Assembly (NCBI GenBank): GCA_958510875.1 | Contig: OY294067.1 | Location: 193,695,322 to 193,759,321, forward strand | DNA: 64,000 nt | Direction: 5' to 3' | From: Endomychus coccineus | Taxonomy: Eukaryota; Arthropoda; Insecta; Coleoptera; Endomychidae | Shown: piece after piece, positions 14,724 through 60,400 of the stretch | Numbering within the stretch: the stretch's first letter is position 1 | Layout: each line of letters begins with the position of its first letter | The notes under the pieces: model-generated | Database searches by the model: none | Told to the model about the DNA's origin: nothing | Seen by the model: only the letters and a program-made list of their open reading frames with translations | Made by a program: the position numbers and the translations under genes

Positions 14724-14817
14724 CTTCGTGATGCGAAATTAGGCCGGAAACTAGAGGCAAGTTCTGTGAAACTAGGAGAATCTTCGAGTAAGGAAATGTA
14801 CTAATATACTTAACAAA

Positions 14818-28949: not shown

Positions 28950-29055
28950 GAAATGATCGAAGAAACGTTAAAACCAGATAAACACCTTCTAAGAACAAAA
29001 AATGAAGGCAACATAAGGAAATGTTTTGCTGTTTTTTTATTCATTAGTTTGAGAG

Positions 29056-29543: not shown

Positions 29544-29545
29544 TA

Positions 29546-34431: not shown

Positions 34432-34439
34432 TTTGTGTA

Positions 34440-35382: not shown

Positions 35383-35386
35383 CCAG

Positions 35387-37249: not shown

Positions 37250-37266
37250 TCACCCCCTTCTTCTAA
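37250..37266 (-). promoter_or_regulatory. polypurine tract of the LARD-like element
   Basis: On the minus strand AGAAGAAGGGGGTGA directly precedes the LTR start TGTGATAATCC. This is the normal plus-strand primer position and fixes the element's direction. Repeated at 53131-53147, with one change. Confidence 0.7.
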
Positions 37267-39770: not shown

Positions 39771-40050
39771 GGACGCATATTACGATTCAGCCCAATACCT
39801 CCTTGAAGATTCATGCTCTACAACCAGTTTTGAGATGCTGGGTAGAGATCTTCCACAACGACCGGCTGTCGCCAGGATTCGCGTTGTTCGAAGTATGGGA
39901 CATCTCCGACGGACGCATATTACGATTCAACCTAATACATCCTTGAAGATTTATGCTCTACAACCAGTTTTGAGATGCTGGGTAGAGATCTTCCACAACG
40001 ACCGGCTGTCGCCAGGATTCGCGTTGTTCGAAGTATGGGACATCTCGATA
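39771..40050. repeat. 140-bp tandem duplication in internal copy 1
   Basis: The block beginning GGACGCATATTACGATTCA occurs at 39771 and 39911 but only once in copy 2 (about 55650). It accounts for the whole length difference between the two internal regions (139 bp). Confidence 0.9.
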
Positions 40051-42297
40051 TCGATATGCTTAGGCCAGTCGGAGCCGATCCTTGCTTCTTCATTACCAGA
40101 TAAGGTCTACACATTGCCCCGCGTCATACCCAATATCCTTAGCACTCGATGCTTCTCCTGGCATATCGATGAAGTGCGCGAATACCTCTAACACTCACAT
40201 TCGCACACCATCCACACACTGGAATGAGGAATCATTGTACTGGACCATTCCGGAACAGAAATATAAATCTCCCTAAGTTACCTTTCCATCAGGATTTGAG
40301 ACAGTCCAATACAGTGACCTCATTCCCACTACGGGGTACAACTACCCTTCCAACCTGGACAATAGGGATATCAGGTCACTATTTTAACTAGAGACAGCAT
40401 ACACCCATTGGCCCAGTCGCTCCTTTCTGGGGGAATCCTACCCCTCAGCCATGGATTCGGCTATCATCCAATTCTACTATCAGTTGCCCGGGAATGGTAC
40501 GGGGGTGTGTTCTACGATCTTACATACCACTTTCTCTATTCGGTTAGTTATTTGCTAATATTTTGCGTAGACTATTAATGTCTTGAAGACTAGATAAGCT
40601 TGAACATTTACTGATTTGCCGACATAAACAAAGCTATACTTATATAGATTGAACATTTAAAATTCAGGGACTGGTTATCCACTGTATAGGCGTGTAAAGG
40701 TTTGCTAATATCTCAATATTATTCGACATCCCATGAGTCCATTCCAATTTATCTCTAGTAGGTGAACACAATGCCAATCCCTTGATTGCAATACACAAAA
40801 AACAAAAGTCCGTTCAAATACCTTGGACCTCACCTACTGGCGCTAACCTTTCCAACATTGAATCATGAATTACTGCTTTATTTTAAATTCTAATCAAATA
40901 AAAGCAAAAAAAAAATAATAGCGGCACACGCCATCTGAATCTCATCAGCCTGTTAGGTCATTGACCTCATACAATGTCATGGCGCGCTAGACCGCCAGAC
41001 CTGAATCTCCTTGAATCCTGTATTTCAATTTAAAGGACCCCACGTGACTTCATCAATTATCTAAGCAGGGGAGAGCTTCGTGCGTTATAACGGCCCTAAC
41101 CTCTGCTTCGCGCTGCTGCGGCAGATTCCCGCGAACTAGCCCCTAGATGGATAGCGTTACACAAATTTTTTCCCTCTGGGCCAACTTGCGAATACTATGC
41201 GAGGAAGAGATCAAGCCTGGACTATCGTCGGGGTGCTTGCTCTTCCTGGTCATCGGCCTTCCAAATCTGTGGGGTGTTCCATAGTGTATCCCTTCCATCC
41301 CAGGGATCATCCACTCTAAATCCGTACACCGGGATAACAATTCCATATCCCTCACTAAACACAGTGTACTCACAACTCCATGCACATACACGTCCCTCGT
41401 GTCTGCTGTGCCCATATCTCCCTTAATACCTCAGCCGAACGCTCGCTCGTCCCCACCCTGAACATGGGTTTTGAATTGAAAATAATGGGTACAGTCCGTT
41501 TAAATTAAAATCAGTTCCAGTTCAAAAGCAGTAATAAATCATGAACATATAAACATAAAATTTCGAAATCTACTATAAATGACAACCTTTTGCTAGTGTT
41601 TCCTAACATGCCCTGTTTCTTAGATATGCTTTACTTCGATTCTACCTAGGACCAACATATTTCGTATCAACTGGATACTATACGCGAATGTTTTTAACAC
41701 AAAACTCGTAATCCAGTCCTGGCTGTAACTATACCAGCAAAAACAAAAAATTACATAAACAAACTGCAATAACACAATTATTCTCCTGGTCCTAGAACAG
41801 GTGGTTCCGATGTTTTCGCCTGAATCGTTAGTTCAGTTCAATATACAACAAAAAAAATAAAAATAATTCCTGTGAAGCGAAAACATCATCAAGCAGAACT
41901 AAAGCACCTATCTTTGACTTCAACTCGGAATGGTTATTTATTTCACAATTGCAGAGTATAGATTATACCATTCAGATTTACTACGATCTATATGCTGACT
42001 GCGAAAATTCCTTTCGTGCGTAAATACTTAAGATGTTCATGTATGCAACTGATTCCGCGTATGTAACCCGACTCTAATTCACTTGGGTTCAACAATGGCA
42101 GTTGATTGTACTATATTACCTTTCAACTTAGTTCCATTACACTGTAATCATTATTTTATGCTTGAATAACACACTTATTTTAATAACTCTTATTTCTTTA
42201 AAACGGCGTGAATTCTTTTTTGTAGAATTTGATGTGTGGATCCACAAATTTCTGGATTTTTTTTATTTCAATTTACAATCCCTTAGCTGCCATCATA

Positions 42298-43437
42298 TGT
42301 AACATTCCGCCGAGCGTTGTTTTTTTGTAATAATAAATCTGAACTTACTCCAGATTGATCTAGATTTAATATTTCCCAAATAAGTGAATAGGTTCGAAAT
42401 CCTATCTCACTGCTTGTAACACTTGAACTTGTAACAGTCGGCTGGGTAATATTTCAGGTAGCGTTAATACCTCATCGACGTGTTATGTGAATTAAGATTT
42501 GTTTGTTGGAACCTGCTCGGGTATCGAAGATCTTACTTGATCCGTGTACCCTTAAGGTTCTTTTAAAGCTGCCACCACTAGGCGTATATTTCAGCCCACC
42601 TAGAAGCTGTTTTTGACTATGAGGCCGCGATCCCTTCCAAGGGACCGGCTCCTACAATTACCTATACTTGTATCTTTATATCTATTCAAGCGCAAATTCT
42701 GAAGGTCGTATTCGCGGGGATGTGATTAGGGATTTCCAGTTAAACTCGTAAATCAAATTAAATAATAAATGTATATTGAATAAAACAAAATTAACAAAAA
42801 CAAAAAAAATGATTTTTCATTAACCAACAACGAAAGTTTATAAAATTAATCCAAAATGTAATTATAGGAATGATAGCATAGATTTAAAAAGATGTCAAGT
42901 TCAGGTTGACCCCAAGTGGGAACCTGAGAAATTATCAATGTCGCTAGTACTACCCCCTTCGCCAGCGAGCGAGTTCTTGTCCATGTTCTCTTTAGAGAGT
43001 TAAAATAAATGAAGGACTAATTAGCACAACCTCGAACAGTAATCGGTTTCGCGCTCGATCACGCCGATGATTGATAAATAATGTTCAAAATCAAAGGATT
43101 CCTCCCTTTCTGGTAAGCTGGGATAAGCCTAACGACATGATACTCTATTATCTCCCCTAAGTAATCTCCGATAAGCAGAATTACAATTGATCACTACTTA
43201 GCCTGAATGGCAGGACAAAAACATATTAACAAATAAAACAGTGGCTGGCGGAACATGATCTGAATGGTAAATAACCACATTAAATTATATTGCCGATTCC
43301 GAAGTTGAAGTCAATATAACGTTTGTTCTTTGGCAATCAAAATGCACTTACCCTGTTGGTCTAATAACACCATTTCATCTCGAACCCCTTGTAGAAATAA
43401 CGCACAAAGGATTTAAACACTCGATTTCTACATCGGA
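42298..43437 (-). repeat. LTR copy 2, left part (interrupted)
   Basis: Matches LTR copy 1 35387-36523. It stops at CTACATCGGA, where Polinton-like DNA begins. The matching right part is 52955-53130; 550 bp equivalent to 36524-37073 are absent. Confidence 0.85.
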
Positions 43438-43455
43438 ACAAATGCTTATTAACAT

Positions 43456-44334
43456 ATGTTTCAGTATGATTTCGATGCTCCTCTAGACAACATGAAGATT
43501 ATTAAGCAGAAAGACTTGTTGAATATTATGAATTTAGGACCATGTATCGAAAATATTGAACAATCACAACGTCACAGCTCTTTGCTGCCAAATACTTTAC
43601 GAACAATAATCTGTGGTCCAAGTAATTGTGGGAAAACAAATGTGATGTTATCTCTATTGTTAGATGCAAACGGTCTGAAATTTGAAAACGTATACCTATA
43701 TTCAAAGTCTTTACACCAACCAAAATACCAGTTACTAAAGGAGACATTGAAGAAAATTGAGGGGCTTGGATATTTTCCTTGTACCGAAAGTGATGAGGTC
43801 ATAGACCCCACAGAAGCGAGGCCTAATTCAATCATAATATTCGATGACGTGATGTTTGAGAAACAGGAGAAAATTCGTGCTTATTTTACAAGAGGGAGAC
43901 ACAACTCAATTGATAGTTTCTATCTCTGCCAGTCTTTTGCTAAATGTCCAAAACATGGATTGCGCGACAATGCCAATTGCTTGATTATTCTCAAACAGGA
44001 TGAACTCAATTTGAAACATGTATTCACCGATCATGTAAGTACCGACATGTCACTCGAGAAATTCAAAGAGATATGTAGCGTATGTTGGAAAGATAAATAT
44101 GGATTCCTTATGATAAACAAAGACTGTGATATGAACAAAGGACGTTATCGCAAAGGTTTTGATAGTTATATATACATCAAACATGTATATATACTTTCAT
44201 TTGAAAAAGACAAACCGCTCAGCATGGACGTGGGTGTGAGTAACATGCTTGAAGAAAAACAACAATTGAAGAAGAAAATTTGGGAGTTAGCAAAACGTTG
44301 TGAGGAAAAAATATATGGCTGTGAAATTGGGTAA
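43456..44334 (+). CDS. Polinton packaging ATPase (FtsK/HerA type, A32-like)
   Basis: Genome-packaging ATPase of 292 aa with ATG start, intact. Walker A GPSNCGKT lies at residues about 53-60. Walker B, a hydrophobic strand ending in FDDV, is at about 127-132. A sensor-like RHNSIDSFYLCQSF motif follows at about 150-165, typical of the viral A32/HerA branch. It would pump DNA into capsids made from the protein at 49.3 kb. Length and motif spacing are normal for Polintons. The end overlaps the next gene's ATG by 20 nt, indicating compact viral-type arrangement. Confidence 0.92.
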   Translation: MFQYDFDAPLDNMKIIKQKDLLNIMNLGPCIENIEQSQRHSSLLPNTLRTIICGPSNCGKTNVMLSLLLDANGLKFENVYLYSKSLHQPKYQLLKETLKKIEGLGYFPCTESDEVIDPTEARPNSIIIFDDVMFEKQEKIRAYFTRGRHNSIDSFYLCQSFAKCPKHGLRDNANCLIILKQDELNLKHVFTDHVSTDMSLEKFKEICSVCWKDKYGFLMINKDCDMNKGRYRKGFDSYIYIKHVYILSFEKDKPLSMDVGVSNMLEEKQQLKKKIWELAKRCEEKIYGCEIG

Positions 44335-45247
44335 AGCTGAAAATGATGAGATTCTAGATAATATGTTCAAGAATGTATCTAAACCTGTGGAGGAAATTGC
44401 GGAAAATGCTGAAATAGTCAAACAAAATTCGTTGGTTAAACCTAAAAGTATTGTTTCTACAGCAACACAAATGGAGAACATACCAATCCCAAATATTGTA
44501 ACTGAAGGGGAAGAGTTCGTATATAACCCCCAAAATACTGAGGAGGATGTGTTCACCCTCGAACCTACTATCGATCAGATTCGTGAAGAATTCAGAAAAC
44601 ATGAGAAAGATAATGCAGAGGCTACAGAGGAGTTTCTGCAACAATACACCACATTAGCTCGTTATTACTTGGAAGGATTCCTCTTGGATGATGATGTCAA
44701 GAAATACGATGATAGAATGGGATTGCAATATAATTCAACTTTAGACAAATGGTTCATGGGTAATCAACCTATAGAAATTGATAGTGAGAGTAATATAATT
44801 ATCAAGGGTACTCCGTTCAAGGGTACCACAGGACTGTATAATTTGATATTTTACAGAGATGTTCTACCTGGTACTTACACTGTGGAAGATGGAAAAAATT
44901 ACAGTCAAATGATGGAAATGACTAGTGCCCATAGACGTAATAACGATCCAGCTGATCGAATAAGAAACATTGTAAAATACGAAAATGTACTGAAACCTTT
45001 GATTAATTTCATGAAAAGACCCAGAGCCAAAACATACACTGGAAGTGCATATATCAAAAATGATATGCTTGAATATAACGAGAAACCTATCGAATATGTT
45101 TATTGGGATGACGTTAACGAAATGGTGGATAGACTGAGACTTCTTGTTGCATCCTCGCATGCAGGTAACAATAATCATCACAACGAGATAATCTCCATAA
45201 TAGAAGAATTGGTAGAGGCAGGGGTAATTGAAAAAAACCAGGTGTAA
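44315..45247 (+). CDS. DUF8207-type Polinton protein
   Basis: Intact ORF. The first ATG is at 44315, inside the end of the ATPase gene; about 310 aa. The N-terminal part is acidic and probably disordered, with a helical EEFRKHEKDNAEATEEF stretch near residue 100. The second half has the pattern YDDRMGL...K-W-F-M-G, I-I-I-K-G-T-P-F-K-G-T-T-G-L-Y and H-R-R-N-N-D-P, as I recall for DUF8207, a domain common in Polinton-derived insect ORFs. Exact function unknown; its constant place beside ATPase and capsid genes suggests a virion role. Confidence 0.7.
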   Translation: MAVKLGKAENDEILDNMFKNVSKPVEEIAENAEIVKQNSLVKPKSIVSTATQMENIPIPNIVTEGEEFVYNPQNTEEDVFTLEPTIDQIREEFRKHEKDNAEATEEFLQQYTTLARYYLEGFLLDDDVKKYDDRMGLQYNSTLDKWFMGNQPIEIDSESNIIIKGTPFKGTTGLYNLIFYRDVLPGTYTVEDGKNYSQMMEMTSAHRRNNDPADRIRNIVKYENVLKPLINFMKRPRAKTYTGSAYIKNDMLEYNEKPIEYVYWDDVNEMVDRLRLLVASSHAGNNNHHNEIISIIEELVEAGVIEKNQV

Positions 45248-45271
45248 GACAAATTCATCACAGTTATAAAT

Positions 45272-45920
45272 ATGGTTTCAATGGATAAGTTTGGCAGAGC
45301 CTCCTCTCTCATGTGGATATATGATACGAATGTATTTAATAATAATTTCAAACAAGTTCACGGAGTTATTCCTAACGAGCGATGGAAGTTATGATATGGA
45401 AAATCGTAGATTGTGCAACGTAAAATCACCGAATGATGATGGAGATGTTGCAAATAAAGTATATGTTGATAAAATGACACACAAACTGAATCTGAAAACG
45501 GAAACCAGTCTTAAAGATACCTTCAATGTTAGGGTTGATAATTTGATCAAAGATATCAACAAGGATCTGGATGAACATAAATTAACGAATGAGAAGGTTA
45601 TTCTCAACATTGATAAACATCTGATGGACATTCAGAATAAATATAATGGAACGGGGATCTAAAAAAAATCAGAGTATAAAACAATCAGTGATAGTGTGAG
45701 GGAAAACAGAAATGAATTGAAAGAGATCAATAACACATTTAACAGTGTGAACATGCGTCTAAATGACATTACTAGTAAAGTGGAGGCGTTAGAACGACGG
45801 ATGACATCTGTGGAACCTTCTGAGAAGAGACCCTCATCATCCACAACAACAAAGCAGGGCTCTGTGAAACGTATATCTCCAAATCCTGTGAATATACCCA
45901 AAAAATTAATTCTACACTAG
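45272..45920 (+). pseudogene. fibre-like coiled-coil protein, broken
   Basis: Probable receptor-fibre or spike-like Polinton protein. It starts at ATG 45272 with MVSMDKFGR, then changes frame within 45320-45375. The next part has the DMENRRLCNVKSP...KVYVD signature shared with phage and Polinton tail-fibre proteins, followed by long heptad-like coiled coils. An in-frame TAA sits at 45660-45662; the same frame stays open after it to 45920, ending in a Ser/Thr/Pro basic tail. One shift and one stop therefore separate three pieces. The role (attachment) is inferred from the family. Confidence 0.7.
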
Positions 45921-45937
45921 ATTTCCACATTGATAAG

Positions 45938-46861
45938 ATGAGTAGAGAACAAGTTGTGCATGAGCTTCATAAGCCGAGTAGGAAGAATTTCAAACGACGC
46001 AGAACAATCATAAAAGGTTTGGATGATTTGTGGCAAATGGATCTGGCTGAAATGGGTAATTACGCTCGTGAAAATAGAGGATTCAAATACATTTTGGTTA
46101 TGATCGATTGTTTCTCGAAATTTCTATGGACACGCCCGCTGAAAACGAAATCAGCCGAAGAGGTTCGGAAAGCGGTCAGTTCTATATTGCTAGAAGGACA
46201 TCGTAAGCCTAGGAATCTGCAAAGCGATCAGGGAAAAGAATTCTTCAATAAACACTTTAACGATCTAATGAAGAAACATAATATCAATCATTATAATACG
46301 TATAGTGTGAAAAAAGCAGCCATTGCTGAACGTGTCATTCGAACGTTAAAGGAATCGCTTTACAAACATTTCAGTCTTAGCGGGAAATACAAATGGCTTG
46401 ATATACTTGAAGAAACCACAGAAAAATATAATAAACGTTAACATAGTACTATAAATATGGCTCCAATAAAAGTGACGAAACAGATTGAGTGCGAGATATT
46501 GAAGCGATCCTACTCACACATCAAGTTAGCTCTGCCTCACAAATACAACGTTGGAGATGTGGTACGAATAAGTAAGGCTAAACATATTTTTGAGAAGGGA
46601 TTTACGCCCAATTGGAGTACGGAATTATTTAAAATCATCAAAGTAAAAATTACCAACCCGGTCACATATCTACTAGAAGATATGACCAACGCACTAATCA
46701 GCGGCTGTTTCTACGAGGAAGAATTACAGAAAACAAAACAACCCGATGTGTATTCAGTCGAAAAAATATTACGAAAGAGGAGGGGTCAACAGTATGTGAA
46801 ATGGTTGGGTCTAGATAATAATCACAACAGTTGGATCGATAATTCGGATCTCGTTCAATGA
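45938..46861 (+). pseudogene. Polinton integrase with chromodomain, one stop
   Basis: Retroviral-type (rve) integrase used by Polintons. The core starts near residue 28 (D in WQMDLAEM at about 32). The second Asp is in QSDQGKE at about 97, and Glu in AIAERVI at about 131. An in-frame TAA at 46439-46441 splits the gene after the core (168 codons). The same frame continues to 46861 with an SH3-like region (YNVGDVVRISK) and a C-terminal chromodomain (YSVEKILRKRRG...VKWLG...SWI). All catalytic residues are kept. Only the single stop breaks an otherwise full-length gene (about 307 codons). Confidence 0.85.
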
Positions 46862-47139
46862 ACCCATAATTAACCATTTGGAGATTATTAGGAACAAACA
46901 AATAGCTGGAATATTATTGACTCGAGGGTATGGATATTATAATAGAACAAAATTCCGTGAATATGAGGGTGAATCAAGAGTGAAGATTATAATATTTGAA
47001 ACATATATTGTTAAGATTATACTTAAGTCTTTTGTATTGAGAAAATTTGAAATTAATAAAAAATATTATTTCGAGATCTTTGGTCTTTCTCCCTCCCCTC
47101 GTTAAATAACGGTGCAATCTTGAATTCTCATCAGTCTGT
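46862..47139 (+). other. intergenic spacer in the Polinton module
   Basis: AT-rich, with no ORF supported. It may hold the promoter of the PLA2 gene. Confidence 0.4.
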
Positions 47140-47922
47140 ATGGAAGCGTACGTAGGAGAAGGTGTTCTCAATACGCTTATAAACAAGCTCCCGTTTGAAC
47201 TTCATATTCCTGGTTATCAATTCTGTGGTCCCGGTACAAAATTAGAAGAACGGTTGAGAAGAGGAGATTCAGGTATCAATCCACTCGATAAAGCTTGCCG
47301 CCAACACGATATTTCATATCTGCGAAACGCTAGTTTGGAAGGACGTCTTGAGGCGGATAAAATATTAGAGAACGCTGCTTGGCAACGTGTCAAATCTGAA
47401 GACACAAAATTTGGAAAGAGGATTGCCGCTTTCGGTGTGAATAAAATTATGAAGGCTAAGAGGAAATTGGGGATGGGTATGAGAAAGAAGGTTGGGTTCG
47501 GAAGTGCAATTGTTGATGGGGTGAGAAAAGTTATGAAGAATAAGTTTGACTCATCCAATCTGAAGAAAACATCCCAAACAGCGTTGAAAGTTGCACGAAA
47601 ACAATTCAAAAAAGCAGGTGGTCAAAAAAATGTTCGGTTACCAAGAGTAATTCCTATTCCAAAGACTGGAGGATTTCTACCATTTTTGATACCTCTGTTT
47701 GCCGGCTTATCGGTTGCTGGAGCATTGGCGGGAGGTGGTGCAGGCATCGCTAAGGCCGTCAACGACAGCAAAGCAGCTCGAAAAACCTTGGAGGAAACGG
47801 AAAGACATAATAAAACCATGGAAGCTATAGCTTTGGGGAAACAAGGATCTGGTCTATATTTGAAAAAGTATCGCAAAGGTCTTGGTCTATATTTAAATAA
47901 ACATCCAAAAAACTGTCAGTAA
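47140..47922 (+). CDS. PLA2-domain virion protein with pX-like repeats
   Basis: Intact 260-aa ORF. Residues about 22-65 form a parvovirus-VP1-type phospholipase A2 domain. It has the calcium loop Y-x-F-C-G-P-G-T and the catalytic pair H-D in DKACRQHDISY. A basic middle (KAKRKLGMGMRKK) and a glycine/alanine-rich hydrophobic segment (FLPFLIPLFAGLSVAGALAGGG, about 185-207) follow. The C-terminus has a short repeat, G-x-Y-L-K/N-K. In related viruses such PLA2 activity breaches endosomal membranes, and similar repeats occur in minor capsid or core proteins. Position next to the protease fits a virion component processed during maturation (inference). Confidence 0.78.
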   Translation: MEAYVGEGVLNTLINKLPFELHIPGYQFCGPGTKLEERLRRGDSGINPLDKACRQHDISYLRNASLEGRLEADKILENAAWQRVKSEDTKFGKRIAAFGVNKIMKAKRKLGMGMRKKVGFGSAIVDGVRKVMKNKFDSSNLKKTSQTALKVARKQFKKAGGQKNVRLPRVIPIPKTGGFLPFLIPLFAGLSVAGALAGGGAGIAKAVNDSKAARKTLEETERHNKTMEAIALGKQGSGLYLKKYRKGLGLYLNKHPKNCQ

Positions 47923-48293
47923 ACCTACCCAGAAGACCTCTGACCGATCTCGATCTACGAAAACTAGCAAAAGCTCTGAAAATTACCCATTTTAGAGGAG
48001 TATTTATGCGTGATGAACTGCCATCCAACGGACCATGGGAAAACGAGCGTGGAATAGTTAATTTAGATAGCTCGGACAATGGAGGCACTCACTAGGTTGG
48101 GTTTAATAAAGTCGGTGATACAGTTTTATATTATGATAGTTTTGGCAATTTACGCCCCCCTCGCGAACTAGTGGATTATTTCAAAAAGGGTAAGATATTA
48201 TTCAATCACGATAATTTTCAACAATATAACACTTATAATTGTGGTCAGTTATGTTCAGAATTCCTCTCTAACTCTTCAGTTGTGCTCGACTAA
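47901..48293 (+). pseudogene. adenain-like cysteine protease, one stop
   Basis: C5/adenain-type maturation protease. The frame is open from 47901, overlapping the PLA2 gene end. It carries a PRRPLTDLDLRKLAK start region, a GPWENERGIVN strand, then GGTH (catalytic His) directly followed by TAG 48093-48095. After it come Y-Y-D-S-F-G (acidic residue) and N-T-Y-N-C-G-Q-L-C-S (catalytic Cys), ending at TAA 48291-48293. The stop stands where family members have an aromatic residue. No ATG lies near the open start; the first in-frame ATG is at about 48006, so the N-terminus is uncertain. Confidence 0.75.
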
Positions 48294-48353
48294 CCCTGCA
48301 TTTATTAGTATATAAATAGATTGTTGGTAAAGTTTTCATCAATCATATTTCAG

Positions 48354-49088
48354 ACGTTCACTATCACGGGTAAGAGCTCCCGCTTATCTGTAGATTTTCA
48401 CCCACCTATAGAACTAGATCCTCATTCATATTATTCTATCGCACATGTTGGCTTGCATACGTACAATAGCATTCCGAACATTGAAGAAGGTTTCAATAAA
48501 TTTTATTATAAAAATGTGAAGGGTTAGGAAGAAGTAGTAACTATACCTACGGGGTCCTACGAGTTGACAGACATCGAGGATTTCATACAAAGTGCAGTTT
48601 GTGGGATAGGAGTGAAGCAAGAAGAACGTGACCGGAAATTATCAATAGAATCTAACAACAACACTCTACACACAGAGCTGAAGAGTGATTTTGAAGTGAA
48701 TTTTATTCCTAAAGATAGTATAAGCGAACTGTTGGGATTCAACAAAAATAAATGGACATCTCGTGAACTACACATATCTGATCGACCTATAAACATAATC
48801 AAAGTTCAAACTATTAGAGTGGAGTGTAACTCAACCGCAGGAGCATATTATAACAATAAGATAGCTCATACGATATATGAGTTCTCACCTCTTGTACCAC
48901 CTGGGTTTTCCATTGATATAGAGCCGAAGAATCTTATTTATCTACCGGTCATCAGCAAGACGTCCTTCGATAACATCACACTGAATATTTTAGATCAGAA
49001 TTGGAAACGGGTTAATTTTCGTGGAGAAGAAATTATTATACGGTTGGAGTTGAAAAAGACCGCTAGGGATTATGGCTTCCAACAATAA
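48354..49088 (+). pseudogene. penton-like minor capsid protein, one stop
   Basis: Single-jelly-roll penton (vertex) protein of Polintons. N-terminal piece: G-K-S-S-R-L-S-V, F-x-P-P-I-E-L-D-P, TYNSIPNI. Then TAG at 48525-48527, with the same frame continuing through IPTGSYELTDIEDFI to PPGFSIDIEPKNLIYLPV and an R-L-E-L-K end at 49088. The usual initiator position appears to be ACG (48354) rather than ATG. A TATA-like TATATAAATAG at about 48306-48316 lies upstream. Two lesions (start and one stop) in an otherwise full-length frame. Confidence 0.78.
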
Positions 49089-49174
49089 ATAATAATCCAA
49101 TACTCACCACCACTCATTATATGGAAAGAATTCATCTGAGAAGGTTGTTGTTGCAGTAGCCATCACTTGAGAAC

Positions 49175-49354
49175 ATGGGTTTGGATTTCAGCAATGAAAG
49201 ACATACCCATAGTGGTCATCAGTCATTATCTACAACGAGTTCAAGGGAGAAGGTTGCTTCTGCATCACTATCTTTGGAAAATATCAATTTTTTGAAGTCC
49301 TTTGGTTACAATGTCGGGAAAACTTCAAATATTCAACGAGCCAAACTTCAATGA
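49175..49354 (+). CDS. small Polinton ORF overlapping the capsid start
   Basis: 59-aa ORF (ATG 49175, TGA 49352-49354) between penton and major capsid genes. It overlaps the capsid reading frame by about 44 nt. It begins MGLDFSNERHTHSGH and ends in a basic helix with N-F-L-K-S-F-G. The H-x-H-S-G-H block and F-L-K-S-L/F-G end resemble what I recall of a tiny conserved protein at this place in animal Polintons. A second Gly and Ser give a weak myristoylation pattern. Function unknown. Confidence 0.55.
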   Translation: MGLDFSNERHTHSGHQSLSTTSSREKVASASLSLENINFLKSFGYNVGKTSNIQRAKLQ

Positions 49355-50507
49355 AGACATCATCCGAGAAGAAACTCATACCTACTATCCCCACACAACA
49401 TCTTTTGGCAACAGCGATGAAATTGAGATATTAATCAATCAACAAGATGTATTGGTAGATTTGGCCTCGTCTGCTTTATTCATCGAGGCAGAATTCCAGC
49501 CAGAAGCAAGTGGTGAATGTAAACTAACGAATAATTTCGGAGCGTTTCTCTTCGAATATATCAGTTATGAATTGAATGGAAAAGAGATAGACAAAGTACG
49601 TGATCCTGGTATTGTCAGCACCATCAGAGCTTATCTAACATATGTCAAACATGAATCTATACCTCTAGCTATTTCTGGATGGTCATATAAGGATGCACTG
49701 AGTTCAGTCTACAATAATAAAATCAATTTATGGATACCGTTGAATTTTCTACTAGGCCTATTCATTGACTATAACAAAGTTTTGAGTGGTAAATATAAGC
49801 TGCGCTTGATAAGGTCTCGAACCGATAACGATTGCTATACTAATAGCACAGGCACGAAAACGGCTAAAATAAATGTGAAGACGATAGCATTAAAAGTGCG
49901 ACATGTGTTTCCAAGTGATCAAGTTAAATTTCAAATGTTGGGGAATTTGAGTGCTGAGAAGCCTATTTTGATTCCATTCCGTTGTTGGGATCTGCATGAA
50001 AATCCGTTGATGAAGGAGAGCACTCGCGACATTTGGGCTGTTAAAACATCAATGAATTTGGAACGTCCTAGAAATGTGATTCTAGCTTTCCAAACTGATC
50101 GAAAAAATAATCCTGTTAAGCACAGTGCATATTTCGATAATATAAACTTGCTAAATGTAAAATTATACTTGAATTCAGAGTGTTATCCATATGAAGCAAT
50201 GAAATTGAATTTCACCGACCAGCAATATGTGGAAGCATACCAGATGTACTATGATTTCCAGAAATCATTTCCAAATAAAATAACAAGTGAGCCCATGTTA
50301 GATTATATAGCATTCAAGAATAGAGCAATTTTTGTGATTGACTGTTCAAAACAAAACGATGCTATAAAGTCATCAACAGTTGACGTCAAACTAGAGGTGA
50401 AAAGTTTCCTGAATTTCCCCAAGAACACCAGGGCTTATTGCATCATCATTAACGATCGTATAATGGAGTATTCTCCGATTACAGGATCAGTTCGGAATTT
50501 GGTGTGA
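49311..50507 (+). CDS. Polinton major capsid protein (double jelly roll)
   Basis: Hexon-like capsid protein of about 398 aa, intact. The likely start is ATG 49311 (MSGKLQIFNEP); the frame is open a little further upstream, without ATG. The order of beta-rich segments, the EYISYELNGKEIDKVRDPG stretch (about 85), the long insertion between the two jelly rolls, and the SAYFDNINLLNVKLYLN-YPYE region in the second roll fit the Polinton/adintovirus hexon. Trimers would build the icosahedral shell. AATAAA at 50579-50584 lies about 70 bp after the stop. Confidence 0.88.
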   Translation: MSGKLQIFNEPNFNEDIIREETHTYYPHTTSFGNSDEIEILINQQDVLVDLASSALFIEAEFQPEASGECKLTNNFGAFLFEYISYELNGKEIDKVRDPGIVSTIRAYLTYVKHESIPLAISGWSYKDALSSVYNNKINLWIPLNFLLGLFIDYNKVLSGKYKLRLIRSRTDNDCYTNSTGTKTAKINVKTIALKVRHVFPSDQVKFQMLGNLSAEKPILIPFRCWDLHENPLMKESTRDIWAVKTSMNLERPRNVILAFQTDRKNNPVKHSAYFDNINLLNVKLYLNSECYPYEAMKLNFTDQQYVEAYQMYYDFQKSFPNKITSEPMLDYIAFKNRAIFVIDCSKQNDAIKSSTVDVKLEVKSFLNFPKNTRAYCIIINDRIMEYSPITGSVRNLV

Positions 50508-50578
50508 AGAACCAGGTGATGAATCATAATGTTATAATTTTAGTTCTAAATGATGTACTATCAAAATGTATTTTTCCC

Positions 50579-50584
50579 AATAAA
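50579..50584 (+). terminator. polyadenylation signal after the capsid gene
   Basis: AATAAA followed by a TATTATTATTATT tract. Correct distance (72 bp) from the capsid stop. Confidence 0.6.
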
Positions 50585-50654
50585 TGTTATTATTATTATT
50601 ATATTTGATATTTTATTTCTCAAACGGTACGTGGTGATGTAAACATGCGACGAT

Positions 50655-50672
50655 CATAGTTTGTAAACTATG
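50655..50672. promoter_or_regulatory. palindrome with the AACTATGG motif
   Basis: CATAGTTTGTAAACTATG has 8-bp perfect arms. Its right arm is one of four copies of a 14-bp motif (TTYRYRAACTATGG) in the Polinton module; see 51971, 52922 and 52945. Confidence 0.5.
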
Positions 50673-50843
50673 GTAGTCGGTTGCTGGAAATGAAACAAAT
50701 TGAAACAACTAGTGACGTTATCAGTCAGTTATCAACGTTTGCAATGACATCGAAACGGAGAGTTACCCCCCACCCTCACTATTCACGTTCACGTTCTCAC
50801 GTATGTAAGAGAAAATCATTTCAGAAAATGTTCAGTTATAAAA

Positions 50844-51849
50844 ATGAACTTAGCAGCGTGCGTTCGTGATTCAAATGTGGCTACATGGTCCACCAACAAT
50901 TTTATTAAGTTAACAGTTAATGAAGTGTGTCTAAAATTTGGGATCGATATAAGAAACGATAAAAGAAACTATTCATTTTGGAATATTCAACTAAACCAAC
51001 GCGTTCTGATGAATGAAGATCTATTGGATTGGTTAGGTTATCACGGCAAAAAATATCATGCTAAAAAGGGTGTTATAACAAGATTGTTGAGGAAAAACTT
51101 GCATATACACCATTTAGAAATTTGTGATAAGACTGATGCACGAAAGAAATATTATGTTCTAGATTCTATTGATTTCGAATCATTATTGATGCAAATGCGA
51201 ACTCCTAAAGTCATCGAGTTACGTGAACTCTTTTCGTTAATGAAATTTATTATGATGAAATATTGTGAGTACGAGAAATTCTATGAACAACAAGAACGTC
51301 AAAGAGCTGAGGAACGTGAATGTCTTGCGAAAGAACGATCTCAACGCTTATCTCAACAAATTCAAATGAATGTTATCACCTTACGGAATAACATTGCACC
51401 AAATATTGTTCCACCTCCTATAAATTTCGGAAAGAGACGAAATTTAGGTAATTACTTTGTTTTACATAATAAAATTTATATAATATATATATATATATTT
51501 TTTAGGATTATATCGAACATCGAATGATATGAGACCAGAATGGTACCTAATGCGTCGACAGGAGGATGGTTGGCGTGATGCCGACAGAAAATTACAGAAT
51601 CGAGGAATGCGATTAATACGTAAATGGTCTAACATATCTCATGCTATCGATATTGGTAACGAAGTGAAACAGAATTTCCGCCGCGATTTGAAATGGTATG
51701 CAAGAGGAAATATTATTCATGCCGCAGAAGAAGAGGGGGGTGAACAATTGATTGGTGATATCAACATCGAGTCATTGATAGAATGTGTTATCAATTACAA
51801 AAATAAAGCTTATGAACTAGCAAATGATAATGTCAATATATTGATGTAA
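50844..51849 (+). CDS. MSV199-like viral protein, two exons
   Basis: Exon 1 50844-51447 and exon 2 51506-51849, joined by a 58-nt GT-AG intron; about 315 aa in total. The N-terminal half (WSTNNFIKLTVNEVCLKFGIDI...LDWLGYHGKKYHAKKG) resembles the MSV199 domain of entomopox-, irido- and ascoviruses. It is followed by a long charged helix (QQERQRAEERECLAKERSQRL). Exon 2 (MRPEWYLMRRQEDGWRDADRKL...RLIRKWSN) resembles the C-terminal domain often paired with it. DNA-binding or regulatory function is usual for this family but unproven. It is the only gene here with a coding-region intron. Confidence 0.68.
51448..51505 (+). other. 58-nt spliceosomal intron in the MSV199-like gene
   Basis: Donor AG|GTAATT at 51447/51448 and acceptor TTTTTTAG|G at 51505/51506, with a TA-rich body. 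Removal keeps the frame exactly. Without splicing the ORF ends at 51527. Size matches small insect introns. Confidence 0.8.
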
Positions 51850-52099
51850 ACATATTAAGTTCTTCTATTATTTCAAAAAAAAAATATAAATAAATAAGAC
51901 CGAGGTAACTATGAAATGCGCTTGCGTTAATGTTTATATGTATGTTTCATCATTCAAGTGTTCATCATCGTTCGTAAACTATGGCCCCTGAATTGAATTA
52001 CTTACCATCACCGGTTTGAAGCAACGAAGTTATCACCATATATCGGAATTATTGTTATCATTCCTTTTGTTTCATTAAAACACTTATATCTTCATACAA
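51850..52099. other. Polinton intergenic spacer
   Basis: Contains one TTCGTAAACTATGG motif at 51971-51984 and a poly(A)-like run near 51874. The genes on both sides converge here. Confidence 0.45.
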
Positions 52100-52612
52100 T
52101 CATTTATTTACATGATAAATAGCCTTCTTTACATATTTAACAAACATTTTCAACATTAGTACTGATAAAGAAGATAAAATTGCATACAAAATTGCGAAAA
52201 TTTTAGAAATTTCTTCGTCTAGTGAGGATGATGTACGTGTGGATGGTGTTGATATTGTATTTTGTATGACATGTGGTAAACATGATGATTGTTGGAGCAT
52301 TTGCCATTCAGCCATATCTCCCTCACTCCGATCAAAGAATAAAAGTTTAAGTTTATAATGTATGGTGGTACGATTGTCTTGAGGAATGTTGAATGCGAAT
52401 ACCTCTAATTGATTATCGTTGATTTTTCGAAAATTCATCGGAATCCATTCGGTTCGGTTACACCCCCCACCACCATCGGTTGCAACATCCTTCAGACAAA
52501 TATAAATGCGCTCAACGTGTTGGGGAACGTTCGCGTATAGAATACCATTCAGAATTGTGGTTAGAATCACGAAATTTGTTTTTAACATCCCCACTCCCAT
52601 ATTTATCTTCAC
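52100..52612 (-). CDS. Polinton-encoded membrane protein, unknown family
   Basis: 170-aa ORF, convergent with the rest. The N-terminal hydrophobic stretch (about residues 10-27, FVILTTILNGILYA) looks like a signal peptide. The ectodomain has a C-rich GGGGCNRTEW segment with N-glycosylation sites. A C-terminal transmembrane helix (about 136-156, IFAILYAILSSLSVLMLKMF) and a short basic tail complete a type I membrane architecture. I do not recognise a family. It may be a viral surface or immune-modulating protein, or an accessory gene; both are inference. Confidence 0.55.
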   Translation of the reverse strand: MKINMGVGMLKTNFVILTTILNGILYANVPQHVERIYICLKDVATDGGGGCNRTEWIPMNFRKINDNQLEVFAFNIPQDNRTTIHYKLKLLFFDRSEGDMAEWQMLQQSSCLPHVIQNTISTPSTRTSSSLDEEISKIFAILYAILSSLSVLMLKMFVKYVKKAIYHVNK

Positions 52613-52954
52613 TTTTTACACTTTTAAATGTATTCAACAGTCTTATAACTTTTATTTTATCTTCGTAAAAATTCAAGTCTCTTCTTAGTTCATGAACTTT
52701 CTCCACAAATTTTCAAAGTCTACGTATGTATTCTTCAAAAGATATATGCATAATAACACATTTACAAACTTACTGGATATCTTTATCATAACCTCCAACT
52801 ATTCACATTTACACATAGAGTTCTCAATATCAATGTGATCAATAATGAGTAGATATCATTATTATTACTCGCATTTCATTCCTCATCTGACCATCAGATG
52901 ATGATGATGACGTCATCATCGTTCACGAACTATGGTCGCCGTCGTTCACGAACT
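52613..52954 (+). promoter_or_regulatory. Polinton right-end control region
   Basis: Non-coding. It contains an 18-bp perfect palindrome GATGATGACGTCATCATC (52903-52920) that includes the CRE core TGACGTCA. Next to it are two TTCACGAACTATGG copies, starting at 52922 and 52945. The last copy runs across the junction with the LTR. Confidence 0.45.
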
Positions 52955-53130
52955 ATGGTTCATGGCTGACCGGCCAATGATACAGGAAAGAGGACTCAGA
53001 TTACCGTCGCTAGGTCTGTCTGGTATATCGTGTTCAAGATATAATAATTTATAAAATTTTCAATTTGAATTTAAATCAATATTATTCAAAGGCCCCAAAA
53101 CAAAAAGTAATAATCCGTCGGATTATCACA
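52955..53130 (-). repeat. LTR copy 2, right part
   Basis: 176 bp matching 37074-37249 of LTR copy 1. Together with 42298-43437 it is one LTR lacking 550 bp. Confidence 0.85.
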
Positions 53131-56100
53131 TCACCCCCTTATTCTAAGAAAGAGTGCGGTTCTGAAAGAACCCACTCCTTTCTCCGCCTCTGGTTTATTA
53201 TTTTTAAAACCCTTCAGATCATATCCGCCTACCTAGATACGCGCAGGCCTCTCTACCGGAGCGAGCTTCAGCAGCTCCGCTTATGTAAATTTCATAATTT
53301 GCATTGTACAGCAATTAACGCTGTTCCCACAGAACAACCAGAAAAAAAAATAAACCCTATATAACTACATAATATAACTTCGCAATACGTACAATGGATA
53401 CAATTAACAATCTCAGTCATCACTTGTGCGCTATGATTAAGTCCGAAACAGTTCCGCTACCTACGCCACTGATCGAACGGAGAGCGAATCACTAACCCGC
53501 ACTTACACTAGGTGTTCGAATTCAGGATGTCGCTGGATTCGGGGGTTCGTTGCTTCCTACCAAACGGTCAAATGTGTATGACTCGCCAGCAGTAGTCAAG
53601 TGTAACTAGCATTCTCGGTCAATTTGCATACGAGGGGAAGCATGAGGTTCTCTATCGGTATACGCGGTGGCTTCAACCATATGGGCGGCAGGTAGTCGAC
53701 TGGAGCTGGTCCAAGGGTGTTCCATTGCAGGCGGCCAAATAAACCATAACACATATCAACATTCCATTCAACACACGGGTCCAATCCATCCTCCGTGGTT
53801 ACTGGCCTGCATTCCATTCCTCTTGGAATCCTCTTCTCCATTTCCATACCATAACATAAGTATCCCAGGTTGGTACTCCTCCTACGGAAATCTTAAGCCT
53901 TGCATCGCCTAAATTATAATGCCCTCACTAAGTTCTGACTACTACCGATGTCCACACTTAACCATCTTTGGGTGAAACTAGTACCCGCAATTTACCTGGA
54001 TCTGGGCTCGTTCGTGGTGATCCTTCGTTATCTGTGTCGATCAATTCCAGTACAAAGAAACAATTACTGCGAACCGGGTGTTCCGTAACATGCTGATGGG
54101 CCCCGGCGTTAACTTCCATGAACCCATAATATCGCACAACCAAAAAGATAATTGTTCCAGTTTGTAACCCTAAGCGATGACATGTCTATGTACGTAGAAG
54201 GAAAGCTACTACCAGCCAGCACATTGTTGCGGCCGTAATACTCCCGAACACAAGAAGCTAAGTTTTCTAGTCACAAAAAATTTTTTTAAACAACTGTTCC
54301 CTTCATTATGGGAGGATCACATGAAAACAAATTGAATTCGACTTCTTTCATCGTACATAGGAGCGAGGTTACTCTAAAGTTACTTATTACTTAACATGTT
54401 ACACTAACGCCTATTTCGTAAATGAAAATAAATAACAATAAATCCATGCAGGTAGTACAAGCTGCCACACTAGAAATACTTATGCGACATTACACAAAAA
54501 AAACATTAGGTATAATCAGGCTGCTGCTCTCTGCATGAATGAATTTTCTTGAAAGATTCTAAAATGTCGTACTCGGACATAACGACACTGAAAAAAAACT
54601 CTACCAGAGACTACCACTTGAACATGTTTATCCAGATCACCTCCCCTTCTCTTTGCGCTAACTATATTCGTTATCGATGGCATAGGTTACCATAAAAAGA
54701 CAGGGGGGGTGTCGAACATAATCAAACAAAAGCATCTCCCGACCACGTGCTCGAGGGCACCGTTCTATCTCATAAGCGCCTCTACTACCTCTCCTCCTGG
54801 GGGTGAAACGTCTCTCTCGTTCTGGACTGCACTCCGAGTGTCCTCACATACTTACCCCAGCATCTTTCTACATTCGTGACTCGAGAGGTCAGGACTCTTG
54901 TTCACTGAATTTACTTAACCTGAGCTCGAGGGCTCTTCTTTGCAACAAAATAAAAATAATTTAAACGGAACGCGGTGACTTGAAGAGTCAGAGGTCCCGA
55001 ATTTACTGACTCTACTTTGTTCATATGGAACCAAGGCCAAGGCTCACAAAAGAGAACTAACTTGACACTGCATAAAAGCTACTTGGTTCCGCTATGACGT
55101 CACTCGATCTATCGACTCATTCATTCTCTGGGCGGTATTCTCCACCCGCCCCGCGCACTTCCTCCCACCAATTTCCAGGCCTTACTGACGACTACGCGTC
55201 TTGCTGCTCATGCAGGATGCCTATCTGCCCAGATCACTCATGGGTCTTACCAAACAATCAAACCCTGTACCTGCGCTTGGTACGTCACATTAAGGTATCG
55301 ACCCCAAAATCCTGGTCGACTACCCCTACTGGCGAATTCTACCTGCCAGATTCACAATTGGCCTACCTGGCCTTCCTGTCCATACTGGACCGAAAACTCA
55401 CTTCCCAAACTCCGGACTTATTTCCCGTCCTTCTCCAGTGGCACAACTGGTCCATCAGTCCAACCTGGACTTTCTCCCAAAAACAGAAACTTTTCTGGCC
55501 TCCCTGGCCTATACACTTCCAGTTTGCCCTCCTCATGCCAGACCCCTAACTAACCAATCTGGCCTCTTTGTCCCTACTGGACACTCTTGTGCTGACAGCC
55601 CTCTTGGGTATGACCTTTACTGACCTTGTGGACCTTTCTCCACAGCATCGGACGCATATTACGATTCAGCCCAAATACCTCCTTGAAGATTTATGCTCTA
55701 CAACCAGTTTTGAGATGCTGGGTAGAGATCTTCCACAACGACCGGCTGTCGCCAGGATTCGCGTTGTTCGAAGTATGGGACATCTCGATATCGATATGCT
55801 TAGGCCAGTCGGAGCCGATCCTTTCTTCTTCATTACCAGATAAGGTCTACACATTGCCCCGCGTCATACCCAATATCCTTAGCACTCGATGCTTCTCCTG
55901 GCATCTCGATGAAGTGCACGAATACCTCTAACACCTACATTCGCACACCATCCACACACTGGAATGAGGAATCATTGTAATGGACCATTCAGGAACAGAA
56001 ATATAAATCTCCCTAAGTTACCTTTCCATCAGGATTTGAGACACTCCAATACAGTGACCTCATTCCCACTACGGGGTACAACTACCCTTCCAACCTGGAC

Positions 56101-58039
56101 AATAGGGATATCAGGTCACTATTTTAACTAGAGACAGCATACACCCATTGGCCCAGTCGCTCCTTTTTGGGGGAATCTCACCCCTCAGCCATGGATGCGG
56201 CTACCATCCAATTCTACTATCAGTTGCCCGGGAATGGTACGGGGGTGAGTTCTACGATCTTACATACCACTTTCTCTATTCAGTTAGTTATTTGCTAATA
56301 TTTTGCGTAGACTATTAATGTCTTGAAGACTAGATAAGTTTGAACATTTACTGATTTTCCGACATAAACAAAGCTATACTTATATAGATTGAACATTTAA
56401 AATTCAGGGACTGGTTATCCACTGTATAGGCGTGTAAAGGTTTGCTAATATCTCAATATTATTCAACATCCCATGATTCCATTCCAATTTATCTCTAGTA
56501 GGTGAACACAATGCCAATCCCTTGATTGCAATACACAAAAAACAAAAGTCCGTTCAAATACCTCGGACCTCACCTACTGGCGCTAACCTTTCCAACATTG
56601 AATCATGAATTACTGCTTTATTTTAGATTCTAATCAAATAAAAGCAAAAAAAAATAATAGCGGCTCACGCCATCTGAATCTCATCAGCCTGTTAGGTCAT
56701 TGACCTCATACAATGTCATGGCGCGCTAGACCGCCAGACCTGAATCTCCTTGAATCCTGTATTTCATTTTAAAGGGACCCCACGTGACTTCATCAATTAT
56801 CTAAGCAGGGGAGAGCTTCGTGCGTTATAACGGCCCTAACCTCTGCTTCGCGCTGCTGCGGCAGATTCCCGCGAACTAGCCCCTAGATGGATAGCGTTAC
56901 ACAAATTTTTTCCCTCTGGGCCAACTTGCGAATACTATGCGAGGAAGAGATCAAGCCTGGACTATCGTCGGGGTGCTTGCTCTTTCTGGTCATCGACCTT
57001 CCAAATCTGTGGGGTGTTCCATAGTGTATCCCTTCCATCCCAGGGATTATCCACTCTAAATCCGTACATCGGGATAACAATTCCATATCCCTCACTAAAC
57101 ACAGTGTACTTACAACTCCATGCACATACACGTCCCTCGTGTCTGCTGCGCCCATATCTCCCTTAATACCTCAGCCGAACGCTCGCTCGTCCCCACCCTG
57201 AACATGGGTTTTGAATTGAAAATAATGGGTACAGTCCGTTTGAATTAAAATCAGTTCCAGTTCAAAAGCAGTAATAAAACATGAACATATAAACATAAAA
57301 TTTCAAAATCTACTATAAATGACAACCTTTTGCTATATCAGTGTTTCCTAACATGCCGTTTCTTAGATATGCTTTACTTCGATTCTACCTAGGACCAACA
57401 TAATCCGTATCAACTGGATACTATACGCGAATGTTTTTAACACAAAACTCGTAATCCAGTCCTGGCTGTAACTATACTAGCAAAAACAAAAAATTACATA
57501 AACAAACTGCAATAACACAATCATTCTCCTGGTCCTAGAACAGCTGGTTCCGATGTTTTCGCCTGAATCGTTAGTTCAGTTCAATATACAACAAAAAAAA
57601 TAAAAATAATTCCTGTAAAGCGAAAACATCATCAAGCAGAACTAAAGCACCTATCTTTGACTTCAACTCGAAATGGTTATTTATTTCACAATTGCAGAGT
57701 ATAGATTATACCATTCAGATTTACTACGATCTATATGCTGACTGCGAAAATTCCTTTCGTGCGTAAATACTTAAGATGTTCATGTATGCAACTGATTCCG
57801 CGTATGTAACCCGACTCTAATTCACTTGGGTTCAACAATGCCAGCTGATTGTACTATATCACCTTTCAACTTAGTTCCATTACACTGTAATCATTATTTT
57901 ACGCTTGAATAACACACTTATTTTAATAACTTCTATTTCTTTAAAACGGCGTGAATTCTTTTTTGTAGAATTTGATGTGTGGATCCACAAATTTCTGGAT
58001 TTTTTTACTTCAATTTACAATCTCTTAGCTGCCTTCATA
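53131..58039 (-). other. LARD-like internal region, copy 2
   Basis: 4909 bp, near-identical to 37250-42297 minus one 140-bp repeat unit. It keeps the small ORFs 55094-55549 (+) and, on the minus strand, 53596-53847, 53958-54143 and 56883-57155, with a few amino-acid changes. No known domain. Confidence 0.6.
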
Positions 58040-59895: not shown

Positions 59896-59899
59896 CCAG

Positions 59900-60400
59900 T
59901 AAGGAGCCTTCCGAGGGTTGGAGGAGGGTAGGCACCGGAGAGGAGCCTTCCGAGGGTTGGGAGGAGGAAGGCACCCCTGAGGAGCATTCTTCCATGGATG
60001 GAAAGGGAGAAGGGAACGGTGGTACCGGTACAGAGCCACCTTGGGTTTGGTTGTTTTTTTTTTGTTTTTGTTGGTCTCATATTGGATCCCACGAGTGATG
60101 GGAAAGGGTGGTCGCCATTTGCAGAGCACCATACGGATGGAAGGTCTGCATACTACTGGTATTCGACTCGGTTTCCCAGAGGAACCGTTCGTGACACTGT
60201 ACCCCAGTGTCATTCAGCCGTCGGCACGGTAGTCTCACACCTTGGTTTGGGTTTTTGGGGCATCTGGTCCGGGACCCCTTAATCAGTATATTCGGTGTTA
60301 TCCAGGTACAGACAAGTCTGTTCCTTAACATTCGGCTATCCGCCACCTGCCGATCCGCCTGATAGCTAACACCCCGAAGCCCCAAGAATCATCATCATTT
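59900..60400 (-). pseudogene. LINE 5' UTR and ORF1 N-terminus, separated by the array
   Basis: Minus strand. A GC-rich leader (about 60400-60120) precedes a start-like ATG near 60080, followed by Ser/Pro/Glu-rich repeats (SSSQPSEGSSPVPT-type). Their style matches the start of the ORF1 fragment that resumes at 35382. The CCAG duplication borders it. The reading frame is poorly kept. Confidence 0.55.

What the first reader, a model, noticed from the sequence alone, without database searches (positions are those of the whole stretch)
43438..52954. Polinton/adintovirus structural module lodged inside an LTR, replacing 550 bp
Copy 2 of the LTR loses the equivalent of 36524-37073 and instead carries 9.5 kb with a full virion gene set but no PolB, TIRs or 6-bp duplication. 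The right junction shares ATGG. This looks like micro-homology replacement or capture, not normal Polinton integration. If the array can move or be transcribed, it would carry virion genes with it.
Basis: partly seen in the sequence, partly recalled or inferred. Interest (0 to 1): 0.88.

Follow-up and report, generated by a model that had tools for sequence, protein, structure and literature searches.

The report
Virus-like transposon without its polymerase
The 9.5 kb of capsid genes stuck in a retrotransposon repeat is a broken, truncated copy of a virus-like transposon family that is spread through this beetle-like genome with its shell genes but no DNA polymerase found, while polymerase genes were found on separate elements.

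Summary
The observation largely holds. LTR copy 2 is interrupted at 43443/52955; 543 bp of LTR are replaced by 9,511 bp of polinton (Maverick) genes, without PolB, a TIR pair or a target duplication. The "full virion set" is broken: fibre-like, integrase, protease and penton frames each carry an in-frame stop; MCP and PLA2 are open.

The interpretation changes. Missing PolB is not a product of the capture. Of 24 other copies whose ends I examined, 15 are bounded elements of 9.9-14.5 kb with perfect 6-bp target duplications; 9 are unresolved. No PolB was found in 57 fetched pieces. TIR pairs reach 100% over 1.5 kb, so the family moved recently. PolB of about 1,270 aa lies on separate TIR elements (2 of 2 examined have 6-bp duplications) where I found no V-type integrase or capsid gene.

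The window copy is thus a doubly truncated, decaying copy, most likely end-joined into an LTR; its right junction is unique in the genome. Whether the two element types mobilise each other is untested, and their TIRs are dissimilar.

The parts
35387..37249 (-). LTR copy 1 of a tandem LTR-internal-LTR-internal-LTR array; strand inferred from purine tract and primer-site-like sequence
36531..37073 (.). LTR stretch (543 bp) present in copies 1 and 3, missing from copy 2
37250..42297 (-). internal region 1 of the array; no frame over 157 codons, no Pfam match for the longest
42298..43443 (-). LTR copy 2, left part, up to the left junction
43444..52954 (+). insert: truncated copy of the PolB-less polinton family (V1 type)
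43456..44334 (+). A32-type packaging ATPase (open here; frame runs on past the end seen in other copies)
   Evidence: PF04665 7.3e-6
44315..45247 (+). ORF2-like protein, 310 codons here, 355-368 codons in 7 of 7 other copies; unknown function
45321..45920 (+). fibre-like coiled-coil gene in two pieces, one in-frame stop between
   Evidence: weak phage-tail-fibre matches; one frame in 6 of 7 other copies
45938..46861 (+). retrovirus-like integrase with chromodomain, in two pieces, one in-frame stop between
   Evidence: PF00665 4.1e-16, PF00385 5.8e-5; one frame in 6 of 7 other copies
47140..47922 (+). PLA2-domain protein (CAP of insect Mavericks)
   Evidence: PF08398 6.9e-10; PMC5803895
47901..48293 (+). 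protease-like gene in two pieces, one in-frame stop; identity by gene order and recalled motif only
   Evidence: no database match
48345..49088 (+). penton-like minor capsid gene in two pieces, one in-frame stop; relatives are about 240 aa
   Evidence: the name penton is recalled
49311..50507 (+). double jelly-roll major capsid protein, 398 codons, open
   Evidence: PF21738 1.7e-85; 467 relatives
50844..51527 (+). MSV199-domain protein
   Evidence: PF10553 1.7e-5
51529..51849 (+). unknown ORF, 106 codons
52100..52600 (-). unknown ORF, 166 codons, hydrophobic at both ends (read by eye)
52855..52941 (.). inner edge of the parent's right TIR, similar in inverted orientation to sequence upstream of the ATPase in other copies
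52955..53130 (-). LTR copy 2, right part
53131..58039 (-). internal region 2 of the array
58040..59895 (-). LTR copy 3; the array is flanked by CCAG on both sides

Best explanation
The insert is a broken copy of a polinton-derived family (called V here) that lacks PolB by nature. V elements are 9.9-14.5 kb, begin AGTAGATGAAC, have about 1-2 kb terminal inverted repeats built of tandem subunits, code for ATPase, ORF2, fibre-like protein, integrase, PLA2 protein, protease-like, penton-like and DJR capsid protein, and insert with 6-bp target duplications [shown]. They must therefore be copied by a polymerase supplied by something else in the cell [inferred]; PolB genes in this genome lie on other elements [shown for those examined]. 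The copy in the window was not placed by its integrase: about 2 kb at its left (whole left TIR) and the right TIR beyond its inner edge are missing, 543 bp of LTR are gone, and the right join shares ATGG. The likeliest route is repair of a break in LTR copy 2 by end-joining with a V fragment [inferred]. It has since decayed without constraint [consistent with counts].
For: Own-genome search: 40 scored places for 43438-45400, the window included, 93-98% for the 39 others. Three copies: perfect 6-bp duplications CTGATC, AGTAAT, GCTACC, 12.6-12.8 kb. Twenty more: 11 perfect duplications, 10,986-14,482 bp. One short type: 9,851 bp, CTTCCT. Spacing from ATPase start to 50431-50433 is 7.0 kb in two copies as in the window, so nothing PolB-sized lies between. 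PolB tblastn: no hit in the window and 57 V-copy pieces, hits in 5 of 5 controls. TIR pairs up to 100% over 1,506 bp. Junction facts. Decay: four stops fit d of about 0.012 per site (4/345), near the 1.1-1.9% divergence of LTR copies and interiors.
Against: 9 of 24 examined copies gave no right end in the fetched stretch; 2 of these were followed and showed TIR sequence but no terminus. 15 of the 39 other scored copies were not examined, and only 40 of 2,181 first-look candidates were scored, so a PolB-bearing relative in this genome is not excluded. Interiors of most copies were judged by length and ends, not read. Left-junction uniqueness did not complete. No reads: an assembly join at either boundary cannot be excluded. 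The stop-count dating ignores indels and has wide error.
Confidence: 0.8

Rival explanations
1. A complete V element first integrated normally into LTR copy 2 and later lost both ends and flanking LTR in two separate deletions.
For: V elements do integrate with TIRs and 6-bp duplications. Deletions are common in old insertions.
Against: Needs two deletions, each running from inside the element into the LTR, against one repair event. LTR halves are otherwise 98-100% like the other copies. Not excluded.
Confidence: 0.2
2. V and PolB-only elements are the two halves of one split, two-component polinton: V supplies integrase and virion proteins, the PolB element supplies the replicase, each in trans.
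For: Complementary content: no PolB in V pieces; ATPase, integrase core, capsid, penton and PLA2 of V find nothing in 14 pieces around type-B PolB genes. Both types have TIRs starting AGTAG and perfect 6-bp duplications (V 15 of 24 examined; PolB element 2 of 2: TACAAG, GATAGA). Both recent: TIRs up to 100% and 99.6-99.9%.
Against: TIRs share only AGTAG; shared words are no more frequent than in control pieces of another family. Another PolB family (A) with its own integrase and ATPase exists and could be the helper. No functional data.
Confidence: 0.25
3. V copies are ordinary deletion derivatives spread by an autonomous, PolB-bearing close relative still present in this genome but not found here.
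For: Only 40 of 2,181 V candidates and 76 of 1,489 PolB candidates were scored. In two Spodoptera Mavericks eight small genes are followed by a large POLB (PMC5803895, section read in part).
Against: Only 1 of 40 ATPase places has a listed PolB within 60 kb, at 40.9 kb. Fifteen bounded copies are PolB-sized too short or collinear without it.
Confidence: 0.45
4. Assembly join of a V fragment into the LTR array.
For: LTR arrays are hard to assemble; no reads were available.
Against: Chromosome-scale assembly; joins are inside unique positions of LTR and element; array keeps its own CCAG duplication.
Confidence: 0.07
5. The virion genes were kept for a host function (domesticated).
For: Capsid and PLA2 frames are open.
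Against: Four genes stopped and one frame changed at about the neutral rate.
Confidence: 0.02

Closest known systems
Insect Mavericks/polintons, e.g. Sf Maverick 1 and 2 (PMC5803895; passages and section 11 part 1 of 2 seen)
   Same: Eight small tandem genes incl. A32 ATPase, ORF2 of about 305 aa, integrase with chromodomain, PLA2-bearing CAP, adenain-like PRO, a 404-aa ORF7 of capsid size; the order ATP-ORF2-INT-CAP-PRO-ORF6-ORF7 is my inference from their Table 2
   Different: Theirs end in a POLB gene of about 1,160 codons; V elements have none, and V1 has MSV199 and other small genes there, V2 ends soon after the capsid gene
Vertebrate Mavericks (PMC8097293; passages and section 8 seen)
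   Same: 6-bp duplications, AGT-type end motifs, low average but sometimes high copy numbers
   Different: Intact ones were defined with PolB; copy-rich genomes there had PolB fragmented, not absent
Capsid-less polintons (PMC4028283; passages and section 4 seen)
   Same: Nine of 72 elements lacked MCP, PRO and ATPase together: like the PolB-only elements here
   Different: The reverse loss (virion genes kept, PolB gone) is not described in the parts I saw; whether those nine keep integrase was not seen
Adintoviruses / Eupolintoviridae (PMC8363768, PMC12567637; passages seen; Starrett paper not held)
   Same: Capsid, protease, FtsK-type ATPase and integrase set
   Different: Reported genomes encode PolB
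Tandem LTR arrays (LTR-internal-LTR-internal-LTR; PMC4668562 listing only)
   Same: Array structure with one outer duplication
   Different: One LTR here carries a foreign insert

Membership tests
Polinton/Maverick (Eupolintoviridae), parent V family | Terminal inverted repeats with AG...CT ends | tested here: met
   AGTAGATGAAC/GTTCATCTACT ends, 0-1 mismatch, in 15 of 24 copies examined; TIR identity 90.5-100%
Polinton/Maverick (Eupolintoviridae), parent V family | 6-bp target duplication | tested here: met
   perfect in 15 of 24 examined; 9 unresolved
Polinton/Maverick (Eupolintoviridae), parent V family | Protein-primed PolB | tested here: not met
   no tblastn hit in window and 57 V pieces, 5 of 5 controls hit; element lengths and spacing. 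So V is polinton-derived, not filed as an autonomous polinton
Polinton/Maverick (Eupolintoviridae), parent V family | Retrovirus-like integrase | tested here: met
   PF00665 in the window copy; one frame in 6 of 7 other copies
Polinton/Maverick (Eupolintoviridae), parent V family | DJR capsid protein, penton, A32 ATPase | tested here: met
   on the window copy
Polinton/Maverick (Eupolintoviridae), parent V family | Adenain-like protease | tested here: inconclusive
   position and recalled motif; no Pfam or PDB match for the pieces
Intact polinton integration (window copy) | TIR pair and 6-bp duplication at 43443/52955 | tested here: not met
LTR retrotransposon array (host of the insert) | TG...CA repeats with a short outer duplication | tested here: met
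   TG/CA ends and CCAG on both sides
LTR retrotransposon array (host of the insert) | gag-pol coding | tested here: not met
   no frame over 157 codons in the interiors; so a non-coding LTR element at most
Two-component (split) polinton | Shared terminal sequences recognised by one replicase | tested here: inconclusive
   only AGTAG shared
Two-component (split) polinton | Mobilisation in trans | not testable with these tools
   needs molecular evidence

The most novel reading that the evidence does not exclude
This genome holds a split polinton: a virion-plus-integrase element without polymerase (V) and a polymerase element without virion genes or integrase, each with its own TIRs and 6-bp duplications, both recently moved and needing each other: a two-segment, virus-like transposon of an insect, with LTR capture as one way old V copies end up elsewhere.
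Probability: 0.25. Interest if true: 0.8.

Novelty: new variant of a known kind. Interest (0 to 1): 0.5.

Why it matters
Polintons are defined as self-synthesising because they carry PolB. A recently moving family that keeps integrase and virion genes but lacks PolB would show that replication and packaging can be uncoupled in this group, as in helper-dependent viruses, and makes a testable case of polymerase supply in trans. It also warns that capsid genes found alone in insect genomes need not be debris cut from PolB-bearing parents.

Tried and rejected
Rejected: retro-capture of a polinton transcript (the insert holds genes on both strands and spacers); normal integration at these joins; spread of the module with the LTR element (right junction once in the genome); intact virion set; Rfam features (0 matches).

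Led nowhere: viral-contig scans with capsid, capsid alignment and integrase gave no relatives (31, 37 and 3 pattern matches, none confirmed). PDB searches with capsid and penton alignments and a protease piece gave no useful match. NCBIfam gave only IS-type transposases for the integrase. Own-genome searches for the capsid family, the left junction and the right part of the insert did not complete (see below). TIRs of V and PolB elements compared: no similarity beyond AGTAG. Literature: nine searches in the held library; no PolB-less virion-bearing animal polinton seen in their listings or in the passages read; the founding adintovirus paper is not held.
Full report
What is in the window. Self-comparison shows one tandem LTR array: LTR 35387-37249, internal 37250-42297, LTR 42298-53130 (interrupted), internal 53131-58039, LTR 58040-59895. 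The repeats run TG...CA, the array is flanked by CCAG on both sides, and a purine tract and primer-site-like sequence put the element on the minus strand (inference). The flank is repeat-rich, so the 4-bp duplication is suggestive only. The internals have no frame over 157 codons. LTR divergences are 13/1143, 15/1144 and 20/1146 in the left part, internals 95/4901.

The insert. Between 43443 and 52955 copy 2 has 9,511 bp of other DNA in place of 543 bp. Genes in order: A32 ATPase, ORF2-like, fibre-like, integrase with chromodomain, PLA2 protein, protease-like, penton-like, DJR capsid protein, MSV199 protein, a small ORF, and a minus-strand ORF. The capsid protein has 467 database relatives (2,400 candidates scored), best 55% identical, named ones mostly from beetles such as Sitophilus, Molorchus and Aromia; the penton-like piece has 91 relatives (133 candidates), best 59%, about 240 aa long, and its upstream piece matches their start. 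Fibre-like, integrase, protease-like and penton-like genes each carry one in-frame stop; the ATPase/ORF2 boundary differs in frame from 7 of 7 other copies. If all substitutions were neutral, four stops correspond to about 0.012 changes per site (4/345; four or fewer has probability 0.73 at 0.01 and 0.02 at 0.03), similar to the age of the LTR array. Indels were not modelled.

The parent family. The window is G000:C1:193695322-193759321 of a 906-Mb assembly in 129 contigs. A query of 43438-45400 gave 40 scored places, one of them the window, the others 93-98% identical; the first look held 2,181 candidates, of which 40 were scored. In other copies the sequence left of the ATPase runs on for about 2 kb into a repeat-built block that recurs inverted at the right end: a TIR, 99.7% identical over 1,535 bp in one copy. 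The ends are AGTAGATGAAC and GTTCATCTACT. Three copies have the perfect duplications CTGATC, AGTAAT and GCTACC (12,842, 12,610 and 12,818 bp by coordinates). Of 20 further copies, 11 have perfect duplications and lengths of 10,986-14,482 bp; in 9 no right end lay in the fetched stretch, and those stretches show no V sequence. One more copy is a short type: its right TIR follows soon after the capsid gene; 9,851 bp, CTTCCT. Two of the nine were followed: short-type TIR sequence lies near the expected place, the terminus was not reached. So 15 of 24 examined copies are bounded; 15 of the 39 other scored copies were not examined.

No PolB. In two copies the distance from the ATPase start to window position 50431-50433 is 7.0 kb as in the window, and the remainder up to 52941 is alignable apart from about 205 bp. 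tblastn with three PolB pieces found nothing in the window and 57 V pieces but hit 5 of 5 control loci. Interiors of most copies were not read; their lengths limit what they can hold. TIR identity within copies ranges from 90.5% to 100%, so some insertions are very recent.

Where PolB is. A PF03175 search gave 201 matches; 76 of 1,489 candidates were scored; 14 control genomes gave none. Only 1 of 40 V places lies within 60 kb of a listed PolB, at 40.9 kb; both lists are capped. Type B PolB (about 1,270 codons): element C1:302428549-302445653, 17.1 kb, with 6.6-kb TIRs (99.6-99.9%), ends AGTAGGCATGG, duplication TACAAG; a second, C1:134339887-134356397, 16.5 kb, duplication GATAGA. Its TIRs hold a GNAT-like ORF (PF00583 4.3e-6). 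V ATPase, integrase piece, capsid, penton and PLA2 proteins find nothing in 14 pieces around three type B loci; a divergent integrase could be missed. Type B PolB is common in beetles and other insects (2,174 relatives of 7,577 candidates). Type A PolB (ORF up to 1,764 codons) has an integrase (1.7e-9) and an A32 ATPase (1.8e-9) beside it and looks like a separate, autonomous lineage; its ends were not examined.

How the window copy arose. Its left join is 12 bp before the ATPase start, where other copies read on, and its right join is just inside the right TIR. The right join shares ATGG; on the left only one base is clearly shared. The right junction occurs once in the genome at up to 3 mismatches, reversed control 0. 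One end-joining event at a break in the LTR explains all of this; integration followed by two deletions is the main rival. An assembly join cannot be excluded without reads.

Against known kinds. Two Spodoptera Mavericks have eight small genes followed by POLB (PMC5803895; passages, and section 11 part 1 of 2). Vertebrate intact Mavericks carry PolB, have 6-bp duplications and mostly low copy numbers (PMC8097293; passages and section 8). Among 72 polintons, nine lacked capsid, protease and ATPase together (PMC4028283; passages and section 4), so capsid-less polintons are known; the reverse, virion genes without PolB in a TIR-bounded family, was not seen in nine literature searches of the held library, which miss most subscription papers. 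I therefore call it a new variant of a known kind. The boldest reading, a split two-component polinton, is open: content is complementary, but TIRs share only AGTAG and another PolB lineage is present.

Noticed in passing
L042:766-2337 (C5) and L030:2879-4450 (C3): A 524-codon matrix metalloproteinase-like frame (PF00413 4.4e-31 for L042; L030 similar by its start only) lies within about 5-8 kb of type B PolB at two places: possible captured cargo of a PolB element.
   Followed up: partly
L037:2459-2884 and L038 (C1:302.43 Mb): GNAT-like acetyltransferase frame inside both long TIRs of the PolB element.
   Followed up: partly
L031, L032 (C2:195.07-195.08 Mb): Second PolB lineage with own integrase and A32 ATPase; eight loci 99% identical.
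   Followed up: partly
V copies, e.g. L010, L011: V TIRs are built of tandem subunits (25, 50, 59 and 20 bp) and vary in length between copies.
   Followed up: partly
39770-40046: A 140-bp tandem duplication in internal region 1 that is single in internal region 2.
   Followed up: no
2153-3958: Open 601-codon piggyBac-like transposase frame (PF13843 2.7e-81).
   Followed up: no
14376-21059: Gypsy-like element with 330-bp LTRs 99.4% identical and a 1,161-codon pol frame, next to Pao-type remains at 12240-14380.
   Followed up: no
27396-29545: DNA transposon-like unit with 0.5-kb inverted repeats (93%) between Gypsy-type pol fragments; mariner-like by recall.
   Followed up: no
31953-35386 and 59896-60400: Non-LTR retroelement remains (RVT_1 2.5e-10); the LTR array seems to be nested in them.
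   Followed up: no
P0131: A penton relative is filed under a Rickettsia endosymbiont of a weevil (Ceutorhynchus): probably host DNA in a bacterial assembly.
   Followed up: no
50659, 51970, 52921, 52944: Repeated motif GTTyrtrAACTATGG in the insert, also in V TIR edges; function unknown.
   Followed up: no
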